In this document: piece after piece, positions 20,251 through 30,141 of the stretch | Layout: every line of letters starts with the position of its first letter | Numbering within the stretch: the first letter of the stretch is position 1 | DNA from: Paraburkholderia hospita | GTDB taxonomy: Bacteria; Pseudomonadota; Gammaproteobacteria; Burkholderiales; Burkholderiaceae | Reading direction: 5' to 3' | Length of the DNA stretch: 64,000 nt | Assembly (NCBI RefSeq): GCF_002902965.1 | Contig: NZ_CP026106.1 | Coordinates: 1,426,001 to 1,490,000 of the forward strand | Notes under the pieces: model-generated | Databases searched by the model: none | What the model saw: the letters and a program-made list of their open reading frames with translations, nothing else | What the model was told of the DNA's origin: nothing | Made by a program: the position numbers and the translations under genes

Positions 20251-21456
20251 TCAAGCGGTAGGGGCGGATTTTGGTTGGTAGAGGGTGCCGTCGCGCAGCA
20301 TGGCGAACAGCACGTCGCAGCGTCGTCGAGCGAGAGCGATGAGCGCCTGATTGTGGCGCTTGCCCTGCTGGACCTTGCGCGTGTAATAGTCCCTTGAGAT
20401 CGGGTCTCGCAGGGCAGCAAAGGCCGAGAGGAAGAGCGCTCTCTTGAGTACCTTGTTGCCCCGTCTGGACGGGTGTTCGCCACGGATGGACGAGCCCGAG
20501 CGTCGGGTCACCGGGGCGAGGCCGGCGTAGGCGGCGAGATGCGCAGCCGATGCGAAGGCTTTGTGAGCGACTTCAGTGAGGAGTCTGGCGGCGGTCCTGA
20601 CGCCGACTCCCGGCATGCTGGTCAGGACCGGCCAAAGAGGGTGTGCGTGCACCAGACGTTCAACTTCGCTGGCAACCTCCTCGCGTTGCTTGCGCAAGGA
20701 TGCGAGTTGCTGGGCAAGACGCGGCATGACGATGGTTGCGGCCTGAGTACCGGGCACGATCACAGCCTGTTCGCTGAGCGCCTGGACGATGTCGGAAGCC
20801 AGGCTCTTGCCCATGCGAGGTGCGAGTTTGGTGAGGCGGTTGGCGAGTGTTTTCTCGCTGGCTGAGGCGAGCTCGGCGGGTGACGGGTATCGCTCAAGCA
20901 GATCGAGCACGGCCGGATGGTCGAGCCGCGGCCCCACGACCCTTTCCAGCGCCGGATGGATCTGGGTGAGCAGACCTCGAATGCGGTTGCTGGTCTGCGT
21001 GATCTGGGCCGCCAGATCGTCGTCGAAGCCGCACAGCATGGTGAGTTCGGCGAGTGGTTCGTCAGCCAGCCGAAGTGAGCGCAGCGTATGCGGCATTGAG
21101 CGCGCGGCTTCAGCAATGATGGCGGCATCGCGAGCATCAGTCTTGGCTTCACCGGCGTGCAGGTCGGCGATGCGGCGCATAGCCAGACCCGGTAGATATG
21201 CGACCAGAACATCTTCATCACGGGCGACTGCCACGGGCAACGCGCCGATGGTGGCGGGTTGATCGACGACGAACAGGAGCTGGCCGTGCGTCTTGAGTTC
21301 GGTAATGAGGGCGCGCAGCTTGGCCTCATCGTTGGGCAGCGCCTTGTTGTAAAGGCGCTTTCCGCGCCGATCGAGGGCGACGGCGTGATGGTGGCCTTTG
21401 CCGACATCGACGCCGACGAATACATCGACAGAGCTATGTTGTTGGTTTTCTTGCAT
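20251..21456 (-). CDS. IS110 transposase (RuvC-like DEDD plus serine domain)
   Basis: 401 residues from ATG 21454-21456; a longer frame to 21534 has no better start. The N-terminal DEDD domain shows FVGVDVGKGHHHAVALD, LLFVVDQPATIG and KTDARDAAIIAEAAR. The C-terminal Transposase_20 domain shows LTSMPGVGVRTAARLLTEV and YAGLAPVTRRSGSSIRGEHPSRRGNKVLKRALFLSA, with the likely catalytic Ser in the SGSS stretch. The gene is uninterrupted, so the element may be active. Confidence 0.92.
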   Translation of the reverse strand: MQENQQHSSVDVFVGVDVGKGHHHAVALDRRGKRLYNKALPNDEAKLRALITELKTHGQLLFVVDQPATIGALPVAVARDEDVLVAYLPGLAMRRIADLHAGEAKTDARDAAIIAEAARSMPHTLRSLRLADEPLAELTMLCGFDDDLAAQITQTSNRIRGLLTQIHPALERVVGPRLDHPAVLDLLERYPSPAELASASEKTLANRLTKLAPRMGKSLASDIVQALSEQAVIVPGTQAATIVMPRLAQQLASLRKQREEVASEVERLVHAHPLWPVLTSMPGVGVRTAARLLTEVAHKAFASAAHLAAYAGLAPVTRRSGSSIRGEHPSRRGNKVLKRALFLSAFAALRDPISRDYYTRKVQQGKRHNQALIALARRRCDVLFAMLRDGTLYQPKSAPTA

Positions 21457-21770
21457 CGAAGGCTTTGCAGGTTGAACGGTTTGGCCTGCAACATCGGTGG
21501 CAAGTCTCGGCATCCACGTTACGGACGGCCTCAAGATATCCTGGCCGAGCCCCTATTAGCGATCACCAGCCACCCACCAGGCCCGGTGACAACACCCCCC
21601 GGATCATGACTGCGACTGGGGGCGAGAATCATGCCGGGCCTAGCTGGCCAAATCCTCGATTGTCGAGGAATGAAGATAGTAACGGGGCACAGGAAAGGAT
21701 TGCGCATGTATGTTGAACACAGCGAATCTTCCGAAGACGGCACAAACGACGATGCTTGAACAGCCAGCCC
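21457..21770. other. Non-coding stretch between IS110 transposase and FUSC gene
   Basis: 314 bp that hold the non-coding end of IS110 and the junction with ordinary chromosome. No RHS sequence resumes here, so the insertion is not a simple interruption of the third RHS fragment. Confidence 0.5.
21580..21668 (-). ncRNA. Candidate IS110 bridge RNA region
   Basis: Upstream of the transposase, on its strand, GGCCCGG (21640-21634) can pair with CCGGGCC (21586-21580), enclosing a roughly 47-base segment with further pairing potential. An adjacent CCTCGA-TTG-TCGAGG hairpin lies at 21654-21668. In IS110 elements this non-coding end gives a structured RNA that matches target and donor DNA. The assignment rests on position and these stems only. 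Confidence 0.35.
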
Positions 21771-26056: not shown

Positions 26057-26126
26057 GGAGCGCTTGAGGAGCATGAGGGGCGTGCGCGCTTTCTGGCTCG
26101 GCAGGCTGCCGCGTTTGCTATCATGG

Positions 26127-26142
26127 CTGTATAAATATACAG
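26127..26142. promoter_or_regulatory. LexA (SOS) box
   Basis: CTGTATAAATATACAG fits the LexA consensus CTGT-N8-ACAG with the typical AT core, and symmetry extends outward by GG/CC to 20 bp. It ends 19 bases before the GTG start of the VRR-NUC gene at 26162 and would overlap its promoter, so the nuclease-helicase operon should be induced by DNA damage. Confidence 0.75.
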
Positions 26143-26161
26143 CCTTCCGTGTCCGATAGCC

Positions 26162-27877
26162 GTGCCGACCGACGCTCCCGATCCGTTCTATTACTTGTCG
26201 AATTTCGAGCGCGCGCTCGCGTGGATCGCCGGCCGTTACGACGATCTGCTCGACGACAGCGAGCGCGCCTTTCTCGACGCATTCCTGCGCGACGGCGCGC
26301 GCCTGCCGAAAGCATCGCGCGCGCTCCTCGTGCGCATGCTGATGCGCAAAGGCACGCTGTTTCGCACGGGGCGGCTCGCGTATGCGGAGATCGGTTGTCC
26401 CGTGCAGGCGGCCGTGCCGCTGGCCGCACTCGGCTGGATCGATGCGGACGCAGGCGTGTCACTCGACGAACTGTTCGCGTGCGCGACGCGCCCCGAACTT
26501 CAACGCATGTTCGCCGCGTCTCCCGCGCTCAAGGGCCTGCGCAAGGCCGAATGGCTCGAAGCGCTGCGCGTCGCTGACCCCGCGCACGCGCTGCCACGGC
26601 GTTATCGCGAGTGGGACGCAGCCGCTGACGAAGCCGCGCTGCGCGTGCTCGTCGCGCCGCTCTGCGAGCGTTTCCGGTTGATGTTCTTCGGCAATCTGCA
26701 TCAGGACTGGTCCGAGTTCGTGCTCGCCGATCTCGGCGTGTATCAGTACGAGCGCGTGGCGTTCGGGCCGTCGTCGCGGGCGTTCCAGCAGCGGGGCGAC
26801 GTCGACTGCTATCTGGCGCTGCAAGCGTGCCGCGACGCGCTGGAACTCACGGACGACGAAGCGTTCGACCCGCTGCTCGAAGCCGTCGATGCAATCGATA
26901 CCCAGCACAACCCCTGGCTCGCGTTGCGCCGCGCGAAGCTGCTGTACGCGATCGGCTATCAGGCCGAACGCCGACGCGACTGGGATGCTGCCTTGCGCAT
27001 CTACGAGCGCTGCGCGTGGCCGGGTGCGCGACACAGGCGCATGCGCGTGCTGGAGCGCGACGGCCGCGACGAAGCGGCGCTTGCGCTGGCGCTGCAGGCG
27101 GCCGCCGTTCCCGAGAGCGAAGAGGAGCAGCAGCGCGTTGCGCGCATGCTGCCGCGCCTGCAACGGCGGCTCGGCGTCGCGGCGCAGAAACCCGCTGGCG
27201 TGCGCGCGGCGCAGCGCGGCATGCTCGAATTGCCGCGTCCATTTGAGCCCGTTGCCGTCGAATACGCGGTGCGCGATCATCTGTCGACGGAAGATGCGCC
27301 TGTGCATTACGTCGAAAACGCGCTGATCAATTCGCTGTTCGGTCTGCTGTGCTGGGAGCCCGTTTTCGAGGCCGTGCCGGGCGCGTTCTTTCACCCGTTC
27401 CAGCGCGGCCCCGCCGATCTGCTCGCGCCCGACTTCCGCGCGCGGCGTGCCGCGCAGTTCGACGTCTGCTTCGCGCAACTGGAAAGCGGCGCGTATCGCG
27501 AGACGATCCTGCGTCACTTCGAAACCAAAGCCGGGGTTCAATCGCCGTTCGTGTTCTGGGGCATGCTCACGCCCGAGCTGCTGACGCTCGCGCTCGATTG
27601 CCTGCCCGCCGCGCATCTGAAGCTGTGGTTCGAGCGGCTGTTGCTGGATATTCGCGCGAACCGTTCGGGCCTGCCCGACCTGATCCGCTTCTGGCCGCGC
27701 GAGCGGCGCTATGAACTGATCGAAGTGAAAGGGCCGGGCGACCGTCTGCAGGACAACCAGATCCGCTGGCTCGCGTACTGCGTGCAGCACGACATGCCCG
27801 TGCGCGTGCTGGATATCCGCTGGACCGAAAGCGCCGACGATGCGCTGGTCGGTGCAACGGACGCGGAGGCGGCATGA
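26162..27877 (+). CDS. VRR-NUC domain nuclease (FAN1-like)
   Basis: 571 residues from GTG 26162. The first 480 residues form the helical SAP/TPR-like body of bacterial FAN1 proteins (YYLSNFERALAWIAGRYDDLLDDSERAFLDAFLRD, MLMRKGTLFRTGRLAYAEIG). The C-terminal VRR-NUC domain has the complete PD-(D/E)xK set: GLPDLIRF (Asp 506), ELIEVKGPGDRLQDNQ (Glu 521, Lys 523, Gln 530). FAN1 enzymes are structure-specific 5'-flap nucleases that unhook interstrand crosslinks. The stop overlaps the start of the helicase gene (ATGA), so both are made together, and a LexA box lies in front. Confidence 0.9.
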   Translation: MPTDAPDPFYYLSNFERALAWIAGRYDDLLDDSERAFLDAFLRDGARLPKASRALLVRMLMRKGTLFRTGRLAYAEIGCPVQAAVPLAALGWIDADAGVSLDELFACATRPELQRMFAASPALKGLRKAEWLEALRVADPAHALPRRYREWDAAADEAALRVLVAPLCERFRLMFFGNLHQDWSEFVLADLGVYQYERVAFGPSSRAFQQRGDVDCYLALQACRDALELTDDEAFDPLLEAVDAIDTQHNPWLALRRAKLLYAIGYQAERRRDWDAALRIYERCAWPGARHRRMRVLERDGRDEAALALALQAAAVPESEEEQQRVARMLPRLQRRLGVAAQKPAGVRAAQRGMLELPRPFEPVAVEYAVRDHLSTEDAPVHYVENALINSLFGLLCWEPVFEAVPGAFFHPFQRGPADLLAPDFRARRAAQFDVCFAQLESGAYRETILRHFETKAGVQSPFVFWGMLTPELLTLALDCLPAAHLKLWFERLLLDIRANRSGLPDLIRFWPRERRYELIEVKGPGDRLQDNQIRWLAYCVQHDMPVRVLDIRWTESADDALVGATDAEAA

Positions 27878-30141
27878 CCTACGTCGTCGCCGTGCGCACG
27901 CTCTGCGAATTCACCGCGCGGCGCGGCGATCTCGATCTGCGCTTCACGCCCGCGCCGTCGGCGCTCGAAGGCATCGCCGGACATCAGGCCGTGACGGCGC
28001 GCCGCGCATCCGGCTATGAAGCGGAGATCACGCTGACGGGTACGCATCGTGGCCTCACGGTGCGTGGCCGCGCCGACGGCTACGACCGGGCGCTGAACCG
28101 GCTTGAAGAGATCAAGACACATCGCGGCGATCTCGAACGAATGCCCGCGAATCATCGCGCGCTGCATTGGGCGCAGGCGCTGGTGTATGGGCATCTACTG
28201 TGCGAGGCGCGCGCGCTCGAAGAGTTGACGGTCGCCCTCGTGTACTTCGATATCGCCGACCAGAAGGAAACCGTGCTGACGGAGCAGCACTCGGCCGCTT
28301 CGCTGCGCGCGTTTTTCGAGGTTCAGTGCGAGCGCTTCGTCGCGTGGGCCGCGCGCGAAGAAGCGCATCGCGATGCGCGCAACGCCGCGTTGAACGCGCT
28401 GCGCTTTCCATACCGCGAGTTTCGCAGCGGTCAGCGCGAACTGTCCGTGGCCGTGTTTCGCGCGGCGCGCGACGGGCGCTGTCTGATGGCGCAGGCGCCG
28501 ACGGGCATCGGCAAGACGCTCGGCACGATCTTTCCGCTACTGAAGGCGTGCGGCGCTGATCATCTCGACCGGGTGTTCTTCCTGACGGCAAAAACGCCGG
28601 GCCGCGCGCTCGCGCTCGAAGCCGTCGAATCCCTGCATCGCAGCGAAGCCGCGCTGCCGTTGCGCACGCTCGAACTCGTCGCGCGCGACAAGGCCTGCGA
28701 GCATCCCGACAAATCGTGCGACGGTGATTCCTGTCCGCTCGCGCGCGGCTTCTACGACCGGCTGCCCGCCGCGCGCGACACGGCGTTGCAGGCGCGCACG
28801 CTCGACCGCGCAGCCGTGCGCGAAGCGGCGCTTGCGCACGGCATCTGTCCGTACTATCTCGCGCAGGAAATGGCGCGCTGGTGCGACGTGGTGATCGGCG
28901 ACTACAACTACTACTTCGACAGTAGCGCGATGCTGTACGCGCTGACGCAACTGAACGGCTGGCGCGTCGCGGTGCTCGCCGACGAAGCGCACAATCTGCC
29001 CGACCGCGCGCGCCGCATGTACAGCGCGACGCTCGATCAACATGCGTTTCGCGGCGCGCGCCATGCCGCGCCTGTAGCACTGAAAAAGCCGTTCGATCGA
29101 TTGAACCGCGAATGGAATGCGTTGAACCGCGAGCGCAATGCCGCGTACGAGGTGCTGCCCGGCGTGCCGCCAAAGCTGCAGTCGGCACTGCAAAATCTGA
29201 TCGCATCGATTGGCGATCAGCTTGCGGAAACCTCGCAATCCGTCGATGAAAACGCGCTGCGTTTCTATTTCGACGCGCTGCATTTCATGTCGCTCGTCGA
29301 GCAGTTCGGCCATCATTCGATCGTCGATGTGACGCTCGATGCGCATCGCGGCCAGGCCCACGCGAAGTCATCGACAGAGATTTGCGTGCGCAACGTGATT
29401 CCCGCGCCGTTTCTCAAGCCACGCTACGCCGCCGCGCGCGCGACGATCGTGTTCTCCGGCACGCTCAGCCCGCAGCACTTCTATCGCGACATGCTCGGTC
29501 TGCCTGACGATACAGGCTGGCTCGACGTCGGAGGGCCGTTCAGGGCCGAGCAGCTGGATGTGCATGTCGCGCATCATGTGTCGACGCGCTGGCGCGACCG
29601 CGAGCGCTCGCTCGAACCGATCGTCGATCTGATCGCGCAGCAGTACGCCGCGCGTCCGGGCAACTACCTCGGCTTTCTGAGCAGCTTCGATTATCTGCAG
29701 CGCGTCGCCGGATCGATGCGCGAGCGGCATCCGCAGGTGCCCATCTGGACGCAGGAGCCGCGCATGGACGAGACCGCGCGCGACGCGTTCCTCGCGCGCT
29801 TCACGACGAGCGGCGCGGGCGTCGGCTTCGCGGTGCTGGGCGGCGCGTTTTCGGAGGGCATCGATCTGGTCGGCGAGCGGCTCATCGGCGCGTTCATCGC
29901 GACGCTCGGCTTGCCGCAGATGAACGACGTCAACGAACAGATGCGTCGCACCTTCGATGCGCAGTTCGGCAACGGCTACGACTATGCGTATCTGTATCCG
30001 GGTATGCAGAAGGTCGTGCAGGCGGCGGGGCGCGTGATTCGCACCGAGCAGGACGCGGGCGTCGTGCATCTGATCGACGACCGGTATCGGCACGCGGATG
30101 TGAAGCGGCTGTTGCCGCGCTGGTGGAAGGTCGCTATATAG
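27874..30141 (+). CDS. XPD/DinG-type helicase with an N-terminal RecB/Cas4-like nuclease domain
   Basis: 755 residues. Residues 1-165 carry the RecB-family nuclease signature: GRAD (Asp 68), EEIKT (Glu 79, Lys 81) and QALVY (Gln 101, Tyr 105). The helicase core follows: APTGIGKT (208-215, Walker A), four Cys at 275, 282, 287 and 325 that should hold a 4Fe-4S cluster, and ADEAHNL (DEAH, 370-373). Motifs near the end include FSGTL, GAFSEGIDLVGERL and QAAGRVIRTEQD (motif VI). This is a 5'-3' iron-sulfur helicase, as in XPD/DinG, fused to a nuclease. It is translationally coupled to the VRR-NUC gene. Confidence 0.88.
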   Translation: MTYVVAVRTLCEFTARRGDLDLRFTPAPSALEGIAGHQAVTARRASGYEAEITLTGTHRGLTVRGRADGYDRALNRLEEIKTHRGDLERMPANHRALHWAQALVYGHLLCEARALEELTVALVYFDIADQKETVLTEQHSAASLRAFFEVQCERFVAWAAREEAHRDARNAALNALRFPYREFRSGQRELSVAVFRAARDGRCLMAQAPTGIGKTLGTIFPLLKACGADHLDRVFFLTAKTPGRALALEAVESLHRSEAALPLRTLELVARDKACEHPDKSCDGDSCPLARGFYDRLPAARDTALQARTLDRAAVREAALAHGICPYYLAQEMARWCDVVIGDYNYYFDSSAMLYALTQLNGWRVAVLADEAHNLPDRARRMYSATLDQHAFRGARHAAPVALKKPFDRLNREWNALNRERNAAYEVLPGVPPKLQSALQNLIASIGDQLAETSQSVDENALRFYFDALHFMSLVEQFGHHSIVDVTLDAHRGQAHAKSSTEICVRNVIPAPFLKPRYAAARATIVFSGTLSPQHFYRDMLGLPDDTGWLDVGGPFRAEQLDVHVAHHVSTRWRDRERSLEPIVDLIAQQYAARPGNYLGFLSSFDYLQRVAGSMRERHPQVPIWTQEPRMDETARDAFLARFTTSGAGVGFAVLGGAFSEGIDLVGERLIGAFIATLGLPQMNDVNEQMRRTFDAQFGNGYDYAYLYPGMQKVVQAAGRVIRTEQDAGVVHLIDDRYRHADVKRLLPRWWKVAI

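What the first reader, a model, noticed from the sequence alone, without database searches (positions are those of the whole stretch)
26127..30141. SOS-controlled nuclease / nuclease-helicase pair
A near-perfect LexA box (CTGT-N8-ACAG, symmetric over 20 bp) ends 19 bases before a VRR-NUC (FAN1-like) gene. That gene overlaps, by ATGA, an iron-sulfur XPD/DinG-like helicase whose N-terminus has its own RecB/Cas4-like nuclease motifs (Asp 68, Glu 79/Lys 81, Gln 101/Tyr 105). Two distinct nucleases and a 5'-3' helicase under damage control would make a compact interstrand-crosslink repair machine. Family roles are established; the joint function is inference.
Basis: partly seen in the sequence, partly recalled or inferred. 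Interest (0 to 1): 0.75.

Follow-up and report, generated by a model that had tools for sequence, protein, structure and literature searches.

The report
DNA-damage-switched FAN1 and nuclease-helicase operon
Soil bacteria of the Paraburkholderia group and many relatives carry a two-gene DNA-repair unit, a relative of the human FAN1 nuclease plus a helicase with its own nuclease domain, behind a conserved operator of the kind used by the bacterial DNA-damage alarm; its exact repair job is still inferred.

Summary
CTGTATAAATATACAG (26127-26142) is the window's only CTGT-N8-ACAG and one of 12 CTGTAYN4RTACAG sites in 11.5 Mb; others lie beside lexA and uvrA. It precedes a full FAN1 homologue (26162-27877) that overlaps by ATGA a helicase (27874-30141) of the EndoDinG class. 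A matrix built without FAN1 sites finds the box in 57 of 60 Burkholderiaceae loci, 74 of 79 named loci (partly overlapping) and 49 of 50 Pseudomonadaceae loci, but only 18 of 39 more distant ones. Helicase residues H37, E51, D68, E79, K81, Q101 and Y105 are invariant in 165 of 165 distinct helicases; the N-terminal model (pLDDT 91.6) matches Cas4, MGME1, EXO5 and RecE. Of 369 class genomes, 13 have this domain and 12 of these also FAN1, beside it in 11. So it is a conserved, very probably LexA-repressed, FAN1 plus nuclease-helicase operon. Crosslink repair is plausible, not tested. The components, and LexA sites before beta-proteobacterial 'Helicase c2' genes, were in print; the pairing and its breadth I did not find. 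The box may explain damage induction of P. aeruginosa PA1865-PA1866, so far outside its LexA regulon.

The parts
26115..26123 (+). Putative extended -10 element TGCTATCAT just upstream of the operator
   Evidence: Read; TGNTATNAT lies just before the box in 122 of 150 relatives with a box (TATNAT in 81 of 106 distinct upstream sequences); control for TATNAT 20 of 7,500 random places. The sigma-70 consensus scan found no promoter.
26127..26142 (+). LexA box (SOS operator) CTGTATAAATATACAG
   Evidence: conserved upstream of orthologues
26162..27877 (+). FAN1 homologue (571 aa; FAN1_HTH, SAP, VRR-NUC), GTG start, catalytic D506/E521/K523
27874..27877 (+). ATGA overlap of the FAN1 stop and the helicase start
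27874..30141 (+). EndoDinG-type helicase (755 aa): RecB/Cas4-like nuclease domain + XPD/DinG core with four putative FeS cysteines C275, C282, C287, C325
27874..28374 (+). N-terminal PD-(D/E)XK nuclease domain, residues 1-167 (H37, E51, D68, E79, K81, Q101, Y105)

Best explanation
This is a two-gene SOS operon. In undamaged cells LexA sits on the box, which lies just behind an extended -10 and so covers the presumed transcription start, and blocks transcription. When RecA on single-stranded DNA triggers LexA self-cleavage, FAN1 and EndoDinG are made together (overlapping ATGA, coupled translation). EndoDinG, a 5'-3' XPD-family translocase with a Cas4/EXO5-like nuclease at its N-terminus (a layout like Dna2), opens the duplex at blocked forks or gaps and lengthens or trims 5' tails; FAN1, a 5'-flap nuclease, cuts the flaps and can cut past or unhook lesions such as interstrand crosslinks, leaving intermediates for RecA and for UvrA-dependent repair. 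Shown here: gene pair, overlap, conserved box and promoter position, intact active-site residues, nuclease fold of the model, strong association of the helicase with FAN1. Recalled or taken from literature: LexA/RecA logic, flap cutting by FAN1, 5'-3' polarity of XPD-type helicases. Inferred: LexA binding, co-translation, handover between the two enzymes, crosslinks as the main lesion.
For: Matrix from 7 other SOS-type sites of the same genome (not the FAN1 site): the best score within -150..+10 of the FAN1 start reaches the top 0.1% of 8,501 control windows in 57 of 60 evaluable Burkholderiaceae loci, 74 of 79 evaluable named loci and 18 of 39 wider loci (24 of the 80 named loci repeat a FAN1 of the first set). 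Pseudomonadaceae: 30 of 30 best-matching loci beat all 780 control windows; 19 of 20 others from lower in the listing beat at least 319 of 320. Extended -10 before the box in 122 of 150. Other own-genome boxes lie beside lexA, uvrA and radical-SAM genes. Helicase follows FAN1 in 58 of 61, 80 of 80 (L155-L234), 30 of 30 and 18 of 20 loci; the window's own flanking genes are mostly not kept (MFS close match in 7 of 80, SRPBCC match in 5 of 80). Nuclease residues invariant in 165 of 165 distinct helicases and in all 65 of an alignment down to 31% identity. FAN1 D506 183, E521 182, K523 183 of 184. Fold. Published: PA1865 (PaFAN1) and PA1866 respond to UV-C, PA1865 also to ciprofloxacin (PMC12796719, passages).
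Against: No box in L039, L042, L043 (named copies of the last two: L210, L211), although a TATCAT is kept there. Box below the 0.1% line in 21 of 39 wider loci, among them the four f189, three f190 and four f209 loci; the f189 and f209 loci also lack the helicase. FAN1 also occurs with a box but without an adjacent helicase (L045-L047; L315; five of five f141 loci), so the two proteins need not act together. One genome has the helicase without FAN1 and without a box (L278). The extended -10 is missing from the pseudomonad examples I looked at (L123, L138). PA1865 is repressed by hydrogen peroxide (PMC12796719), unlike a simple SOS gene. No lesion-specific evidence was found.
Confidence: 0.72

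Rival explanations
1. The operon is SOS-controlled, but its main job is general fork rescue (R-loops, G-quadruplexes, 5' tails at gaps, flap processing), not crosslinks; FAN1 serves as a flap nuclease.
For: DinG and YoaA, the best-known relatives of the helicase, are discussed as replication-stress proteins (titles and abstract starts; PMC11981726 section 3.7). PA1865 responds to UV-C and ciprofloxacin, which are not classical crosslinkers. Presence is patchy (63 of 200 family genomes), so it is not a core pathway.
Against: FAN1 work in P. aeruginosa and man points to crosslink unhooking (passages).
Confidence: 0.25
2. The helicase belongs to a CRISPR type IV (CasDinG) or another anti-phage system.
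For: PADLOC model PDLC01439 (typeIV_DinG) matches residues 177-751 with 405 bits.
Against: The Csf4 equivalog scores 17.6 bits against a cut-off of 400; the other three PADLOC typeIV_DinG models listed score 33 bits or less; no array-like repeats at 16000-42000; the neighbour is FAN1 behind an SOS box in most relatives examined.
Confidence: 0.03
3. The N-terminal domain is an inactive, structural remnant.
For: Pfam finds no nuclease domain in the window protein, and profile comparison with Cas4 and DUF3799 gave nothing.
Against: The whole RecB-type residue set is invariant, PDDEXK_1 passes its cut-off in 2 of 10 Firmicutes relatives, the model has the fold of active nucleases, and the B. bacteriovorus member is reported as an endonuclease (unpublished data cited in PMC11981726).
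Confidence: 0.04
4. The LexA box is a chance palindrome or the operator of another repressor.
For: The loose pattern is expected 0.48 times per window.
Against: Conservation at the promoter and likeness to the box beside the genome's own lexA.
Confidence: 0.01

Closest known systems
Bacterial FAN1 (PaFAN1, PA1865; PDB 4r89, 5y7g)
   Same: Aligned over residues 5-555, E 7e-178; FAN1 domains present; catalytic D, E and K kept.
   Different: The papers seen here treat the nuclease alone (passages); here it is the first gene of an SOS-type operon with a nuclease-helicase.
EndoDinG (Cheng 2025, PMC11981726; PDB 9kqh, Finegoldia magna DinG)
   Same: N-terminal PD-(D/E)XK with H, E, D, E, K; four-Cys FeS motif; XPD core; full-length match E 5e-109.
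   Different: That review has no hit for VRR or FAN1, and its EndoDinG section gives no FAN1 partner or LexA control. Three NTD cysteines (C11, C110, C152) are shared by 161 of 165 helicases of this clade but not by two distant relatives.
[quoted passage not shown]
   Same: Reports LexA sites before 'Helicase c2' genes of beta-proteobacteria (two sections read); probably this operon.
   Different: The main text has no word beginning with 'nuclease'; the figure could not be read; pseudomonads are not in its beta-proteobacterial list.
Mycobacterial lhr-nei2 operon (PMC11323726, abstract)
   Same: Damage-inducible operon of a helicase and a repair enzyme, implicated in crosslink survival.
   Different: Unrelated proteins (3'-5' helicase, glycosylase); there the role was tested by deletion.
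Eukaryotic Dna2, and FANCJ with FAN1 (recalled, except for the matches cited)
   Same: Works like: RecB-type nuclease joined to a 5'-3' helicase; XPD-family helicase beside FAN1 (FANCJ sequence match over residues 324-396).

Membership tests
FAN1 (KIAA1018-type VRR-NUC) | FAN1 N-terminal HTH, SAP and C-terminal VRR-NUC domains in one chain | tested here: met
   All three Pfam models above cut-off
FAN1 (KIAA1018-type VRR-NUC) | PD-(D/E)XK catalytic D, E, K | tested here: met
   D506, E521, K523 kept in 183, 182, 183 of 184 distinct sequences
FAN1 (KIAA1018-type VRR-NUC) | 5'-flap cleavage / crosslink unhooking | not testable with these tools
   Needs biochemistry
EndoDinG | N-terminal PD-(D/E)XK domain with H, E, D, E and K | tested here: met
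   H37, E51, D68, E79, K81 in 165 of 165; fold
EndoDinG | Four-cysteine FeS motif and XPD/DinG core | tested here: met
   C275, C287, C325 in 165 of 165, C282 in 164 of 165; Helicase_C_2 and DEAD_2
EndoDinG | Endonuclease activity | not testable with these tools
   Reported as unpublished data for B. bacteriovorus
EndoDinG | Truncated Arch domain, no beta7 in MD2 | not tested
   Full-length model could not be run
DinG or YoaA (equivalogs) | Score above the NCBIfam equivalog cut-off | tested here: not met
   DinG 71.4 against 598 and 67.9 against 789; YoaA 83.5 against 680
Type IV CasDinG (Csf4) | Csf4 equivalog score | tested here: not met
   17.6 against 400; but one PADLOC typeIV_DinG model gives 405 bits
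Type IV CasDinG (Csf4) | Next to a CRISPR array | tested here: not met
   No array-like direct repeats at 16000-42000 of the window
LexA (SOS) regulon | Conserved LexA box at the promoter | tested here: met
LexA (SOS) regulon | LexA binding and LexA-dependent induction | not testable with these tools
   Only the P. aeruginosa homologues are reported as damage-responsive

The most novel reading that the evidence does not exclude
A compact bacterial counterpart of the Fanconi/Dna2 toolkit: an SOS-induced FAN1 and a FANCJ-family helicase with a Dna2-like nuclease domain form a physical complex that unhooks crosslinks or processes blocked forks, spread through beta- and gamma-proteobacteria as one operon whose LexA box goes with FAN1. 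In P. aeruginosa this same operon (PA1865-PA1866) would be an overlooked, weak-box member of the LexA regulon.
Probability: 0.4. Interest if true: 0.75.

Novelty: new variant of a known kind. Interest (0 to 1): 0.56.

Why it matters
How bacteria deal with interstrand crosslinks beyond UvrABC is poorly mapped (recalled; the abstract of PMC11323726 says the roster is incomplete). A conserved FAN1 plus nuclease-helicase operon with a LexA box gives a defined candidate pathway with ready tests, links an enzyme studied mainly in vitro (PaFAN1) and a newly named helicase class (EndoDinG, function open) to each other and to the SOS response, and offers a concrete explanation for damage-induced P. aeruginosa genes that a 2026 paper lists as outside the known regulons.

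Tried and rejected
Loose pattern statistics: CTGT-N8-ACAG alone is no evidence (0.48 expected), and a scan with the strict E. coli-type 20-mer at 3 mismatches found nothing in the window. Profile comparison (hhalign) of the N-terminal domain with Cas4 and DUF3799 profiles was not significant (the first attempt failed for file format), and Pfam gives no nuclease hit on the window protein (in 2 of 46 N-terminal domains DUF3799 appears at E 0.067 or worse); the nuclease assignment rests on residues, relatives and the model. CRISPR type IV membership was considered and rejected. A third operon gene (SRPBCC, 32 bases after the helicase stop) was considered and dropped: a match lies near the pair in only 5 of 80 relatives. 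Plasmid carriage: 12 plasmid records hold a FAN1 relative, 10 of them predicted non-mobilizable and 2 conjugative; the best four are Burkholderia replicons of 2.4 to 3.5 Mb, so no sign of a mobile element for this type. Distance correlation of FAN1 and helicase (r 0.91 over 3,916 pairs; same nearest neighbour in 45 of 90) was not used, because shared species history alone can give it. The sigma-70 consensus scan found no promoter. A second model (full-length helicase) and a plain Foldseek search could not be run. Recount: an earlier figure of 183 'distinct' helicases held truncated duplicates; the right number is 165, the window's own included, and the invariance is unchanged.
Full report
What is there. 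The window lies in an 11.5 Mb genome; its FAN1 is 98% identical to a Paraburkholderia hospita record. A LexA-like box CTGTATAAATATACAG lies at 26127-26142. Nineteen bases on, a GTG opens a 571-residue FAN1 homologue (26162-27877) with FAN1_HTH, FANC_SAP and VRR_NUC domains, all above their cut-offs; PaFAN1 (4r89) aligns over residues 5-555 at E 7e-178. Its TGA overlaps the ATG of a 755-residue helicase (27874-30141) with DEAD_2 and Helicase_C_2 that matches Finegoldia magna DinG (9kqh) over residues 5-752 at E 5e-109 (title).

Is the box real? The loose pattern is not significant on its own (1 seen, 0.48 expected). CTGTAYN4RTACAG occurs at 12 places in the genome, against 1 for the reversed pattern. 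Pfam on 8 neighbouring reading frames identifies lexA itself (L238), uvrA (L236), two radical-SAM genes (L235, L237; L235 looks like splB, my reading), a DUF2471 gene (L243) and an IS605 OrfB (L241); the frames at L239 and L244 had no Pfam hit and look like imuA to me (recalled). So the genome's own lexA has a box of this kind.

Conservation. FAN1 occurs in 63 of 200 genomes of the family, the own genome included. I built a matrix from 7 own-genome sites, leaving out the FAN1 site, the two OrfB-related sites (L240, L241) and two unassigned ones (L242, L245), and compared the best score within -150..+10 of each FAN1 start with 8,501 control windows of 160 bases in the same loci, most of them coding. 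The top 0.1% was reached in 57 of 60 evaluable Burkholderiaceae loci (L003-L063; L063 lies at a contig edge), 74 of 79 evaluable named loci (L155-L234; L226 at a contig edge) and 18 of 39 evaluable wider loci (L115-L154; L154 at a contig edge). Of the 80 named loci, 24 repeat a FAN1 of the first set. Misses: L039, L042, L043 in the first set; L206, L210, L211, L217, L223 in the named set. Outside the FAN1 upstream region, a CTGT-N8-ACAG or a 16-mer with at most 3 mismatches to the consensus was found once in 326,923 bases of L002-L063.

Elsewhere. All 13 Achromobacter loci keep the position (-26) with symmetric or nearly symmetric variants, 6 of them CTGGATAAATATCCAG, and pseudomonads have CTGTATGCATAACCAG or similar. 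Such variants stand before E. coli ruvA (CTGGATATCTATCCAG) and dinI (CTGTATAAATAACCAG); that these two are LexA sites is recalled. In family f162 (taken as Pseudomonadaceae from its match to PaFAN1), FAN1 is in 210 of 248 genomes. In the 30 best-matching loci the box, 34 to 77 bases before the start, beats all 780 control windows. Because those were the best matches, I took 20 more from lower in the listing: 19 beat at least 319 of 320 control windows; the exception, L324, also lacks the adjacent helicase. The locus nearest to PaFAN1 (93% identical, L248) has CTGTATGCATGAACAG 37 bases before the start. P. aeruginosa PAO1 itself was not read.

Promoter. TGNTATNAT, an extended -10, lies just before the box in 122 of 150 loci with a box (TATNAT, ending 1-6 nt before it, in 124; in 81 of 106 when identical upstream sequences are counted once); TATNAT at random places 20 of 7,500. 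In the window it is TGCTATCAT at 26115-26123. LexA there would cover the start site. Two pseudomonad examples lack it (L123, L138), and the consensus scan, which needs a -35 hexamer, saw no sigma-70 promoter.

The pair. The helicase follows FAN1 in 58 of 61 (not L045-L047), 80 of 80 (L155-L234), 25 of 39 (L115-L154 without L145), 30 of 30 and 18 of 20 loci. Searching 369 class genomes with the N-terminal domain alone found it in 13, the own genome included; 12 of these 13 are among the 20 with FAN1. By the coordinates of the two calls it starts within 160 bases behind FAN1, on the same strand, in 11 of the 12; in G464 it lies 1.1 kb behind the main FAN1 match, at a second FAN1 fragment. The exception has a solo helicase with no box (L278). 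The reverse does not hold: the FAN1s of f141, f189 and f209 have no such helicase next door, yet all five f141 loci have a box. So LexA control goes with FAN1, and the helicase with FAN1. The window's own flanking genes are mostly not kept.

How it works. LexA repression at the start site and co-expression are the best supported parts. FAN1 family enzymes cut 5' flaps and take part in crosslink repair (PMC4103454 and PMC9635880, passages). A 5'-3' helicase loading on a 5' tail would extend the flap that FAN1 cuts, and a Dna2-like nuclease could trim it; this handover is inference. Crosslinks are the best single guess because of FAN1, but fork rescue in general fits too.

What is known. EndoDinG was named in 2025 with an unpublished endonuclease result (PMC11981726; section 3.7 read, passages); the crystal structure entry 9kqh was released in December 2025. 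A 2012 study predicted LexA sites before 'Helicase c2' genes in beta-proteobacteria (PMC3323433, two sections read); it probably saw this operon through its helicase, but I could not read the figure. A 2026 study lists PA1865 and PA1866 among damage-responsive genes outside the known regulons, PA1865 rising with UV-C and ciprofloxacin but falling with peroxide (PMC12796719, passages); that PA1866 is the helicase I infer from the neighbouring number and from L248. Searches with FAN1, VRR-NUC, Fanconi, DinG, EndoDinG, PA1865/PA1866, LexA and SOS in various combinations listed no paper on the pairing; several listings were cut short, and no paper held both FAN1 and 'DinG helicase' by the ranking. 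The library lacks most subscription papers, among them the B. thailandensis SOS transcriptome, and Iyer et al. 2006, recalled as a discussion of VRR-NUC neighbourhoods, was not seen.

Verdict. Observation confirmed; regulatory reading strongly supported; crosslink machine plausible and untested. A new arrangement of known parts, conserved widely enough to matter.

Noticed in passing
L241:374-1522 and L240 (own genome G000:C1): An IS605 OrfB / TnpB-like gene has a LexA-like palindrome (CTGTATATTCATACAG; variant in a related, broken-off copy) about 20 bases before its likely ATG (MAR...), which suggests an SOS-controlled TnpB element.
   Followed up: partly
L242, L245 (own genome C2 and C4): The same 16-mer CTGTATATTCATACAG stands in places that are not copies of the OrfB element (no blastn match).
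   Followed up: partly
L124, L133: In two pseudomonad loci a strong SOS box downstream of the FAN1-helicase pair precedes an imuA-like gene, so the pair neighbours the SOS mutagenesis cassette (imuA by eye).
   Followed up: partly
window 27874-28374: Cysteines C11, C110 and C152 of the nuclease domain occur together in 161 of 165 distinct helicases of this clade but not in two distant relatives; a second metal site or a structural role is open.
   Followed up: partly
L118, L130, L142, L143, L145: Distant FAN1 genes (family f141) without the helicase next door carry LexA-like boxes, five of five.
   Followed up: partly
L035, and G464:C521: FAN1 homologues with an in-frame TGA inside the match, perhaps decaying copies or sequencing errors.
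   Followed up: no
L237 and L243 (own genome): LexA-like boxes before a radical-SAM protein with a weak HHH motif and before a DUF2471 gene: candidate further SOS genes of unknown role.
   Followed up: no
window 20251-21534 (-): A 427-aa reading frame that looks like an IS110-type transposase (by eye).
   Followed up: no
L278: A solo EndoDinG (54% identical) without FAN1 and without a LexA box.
   Followed up: partly
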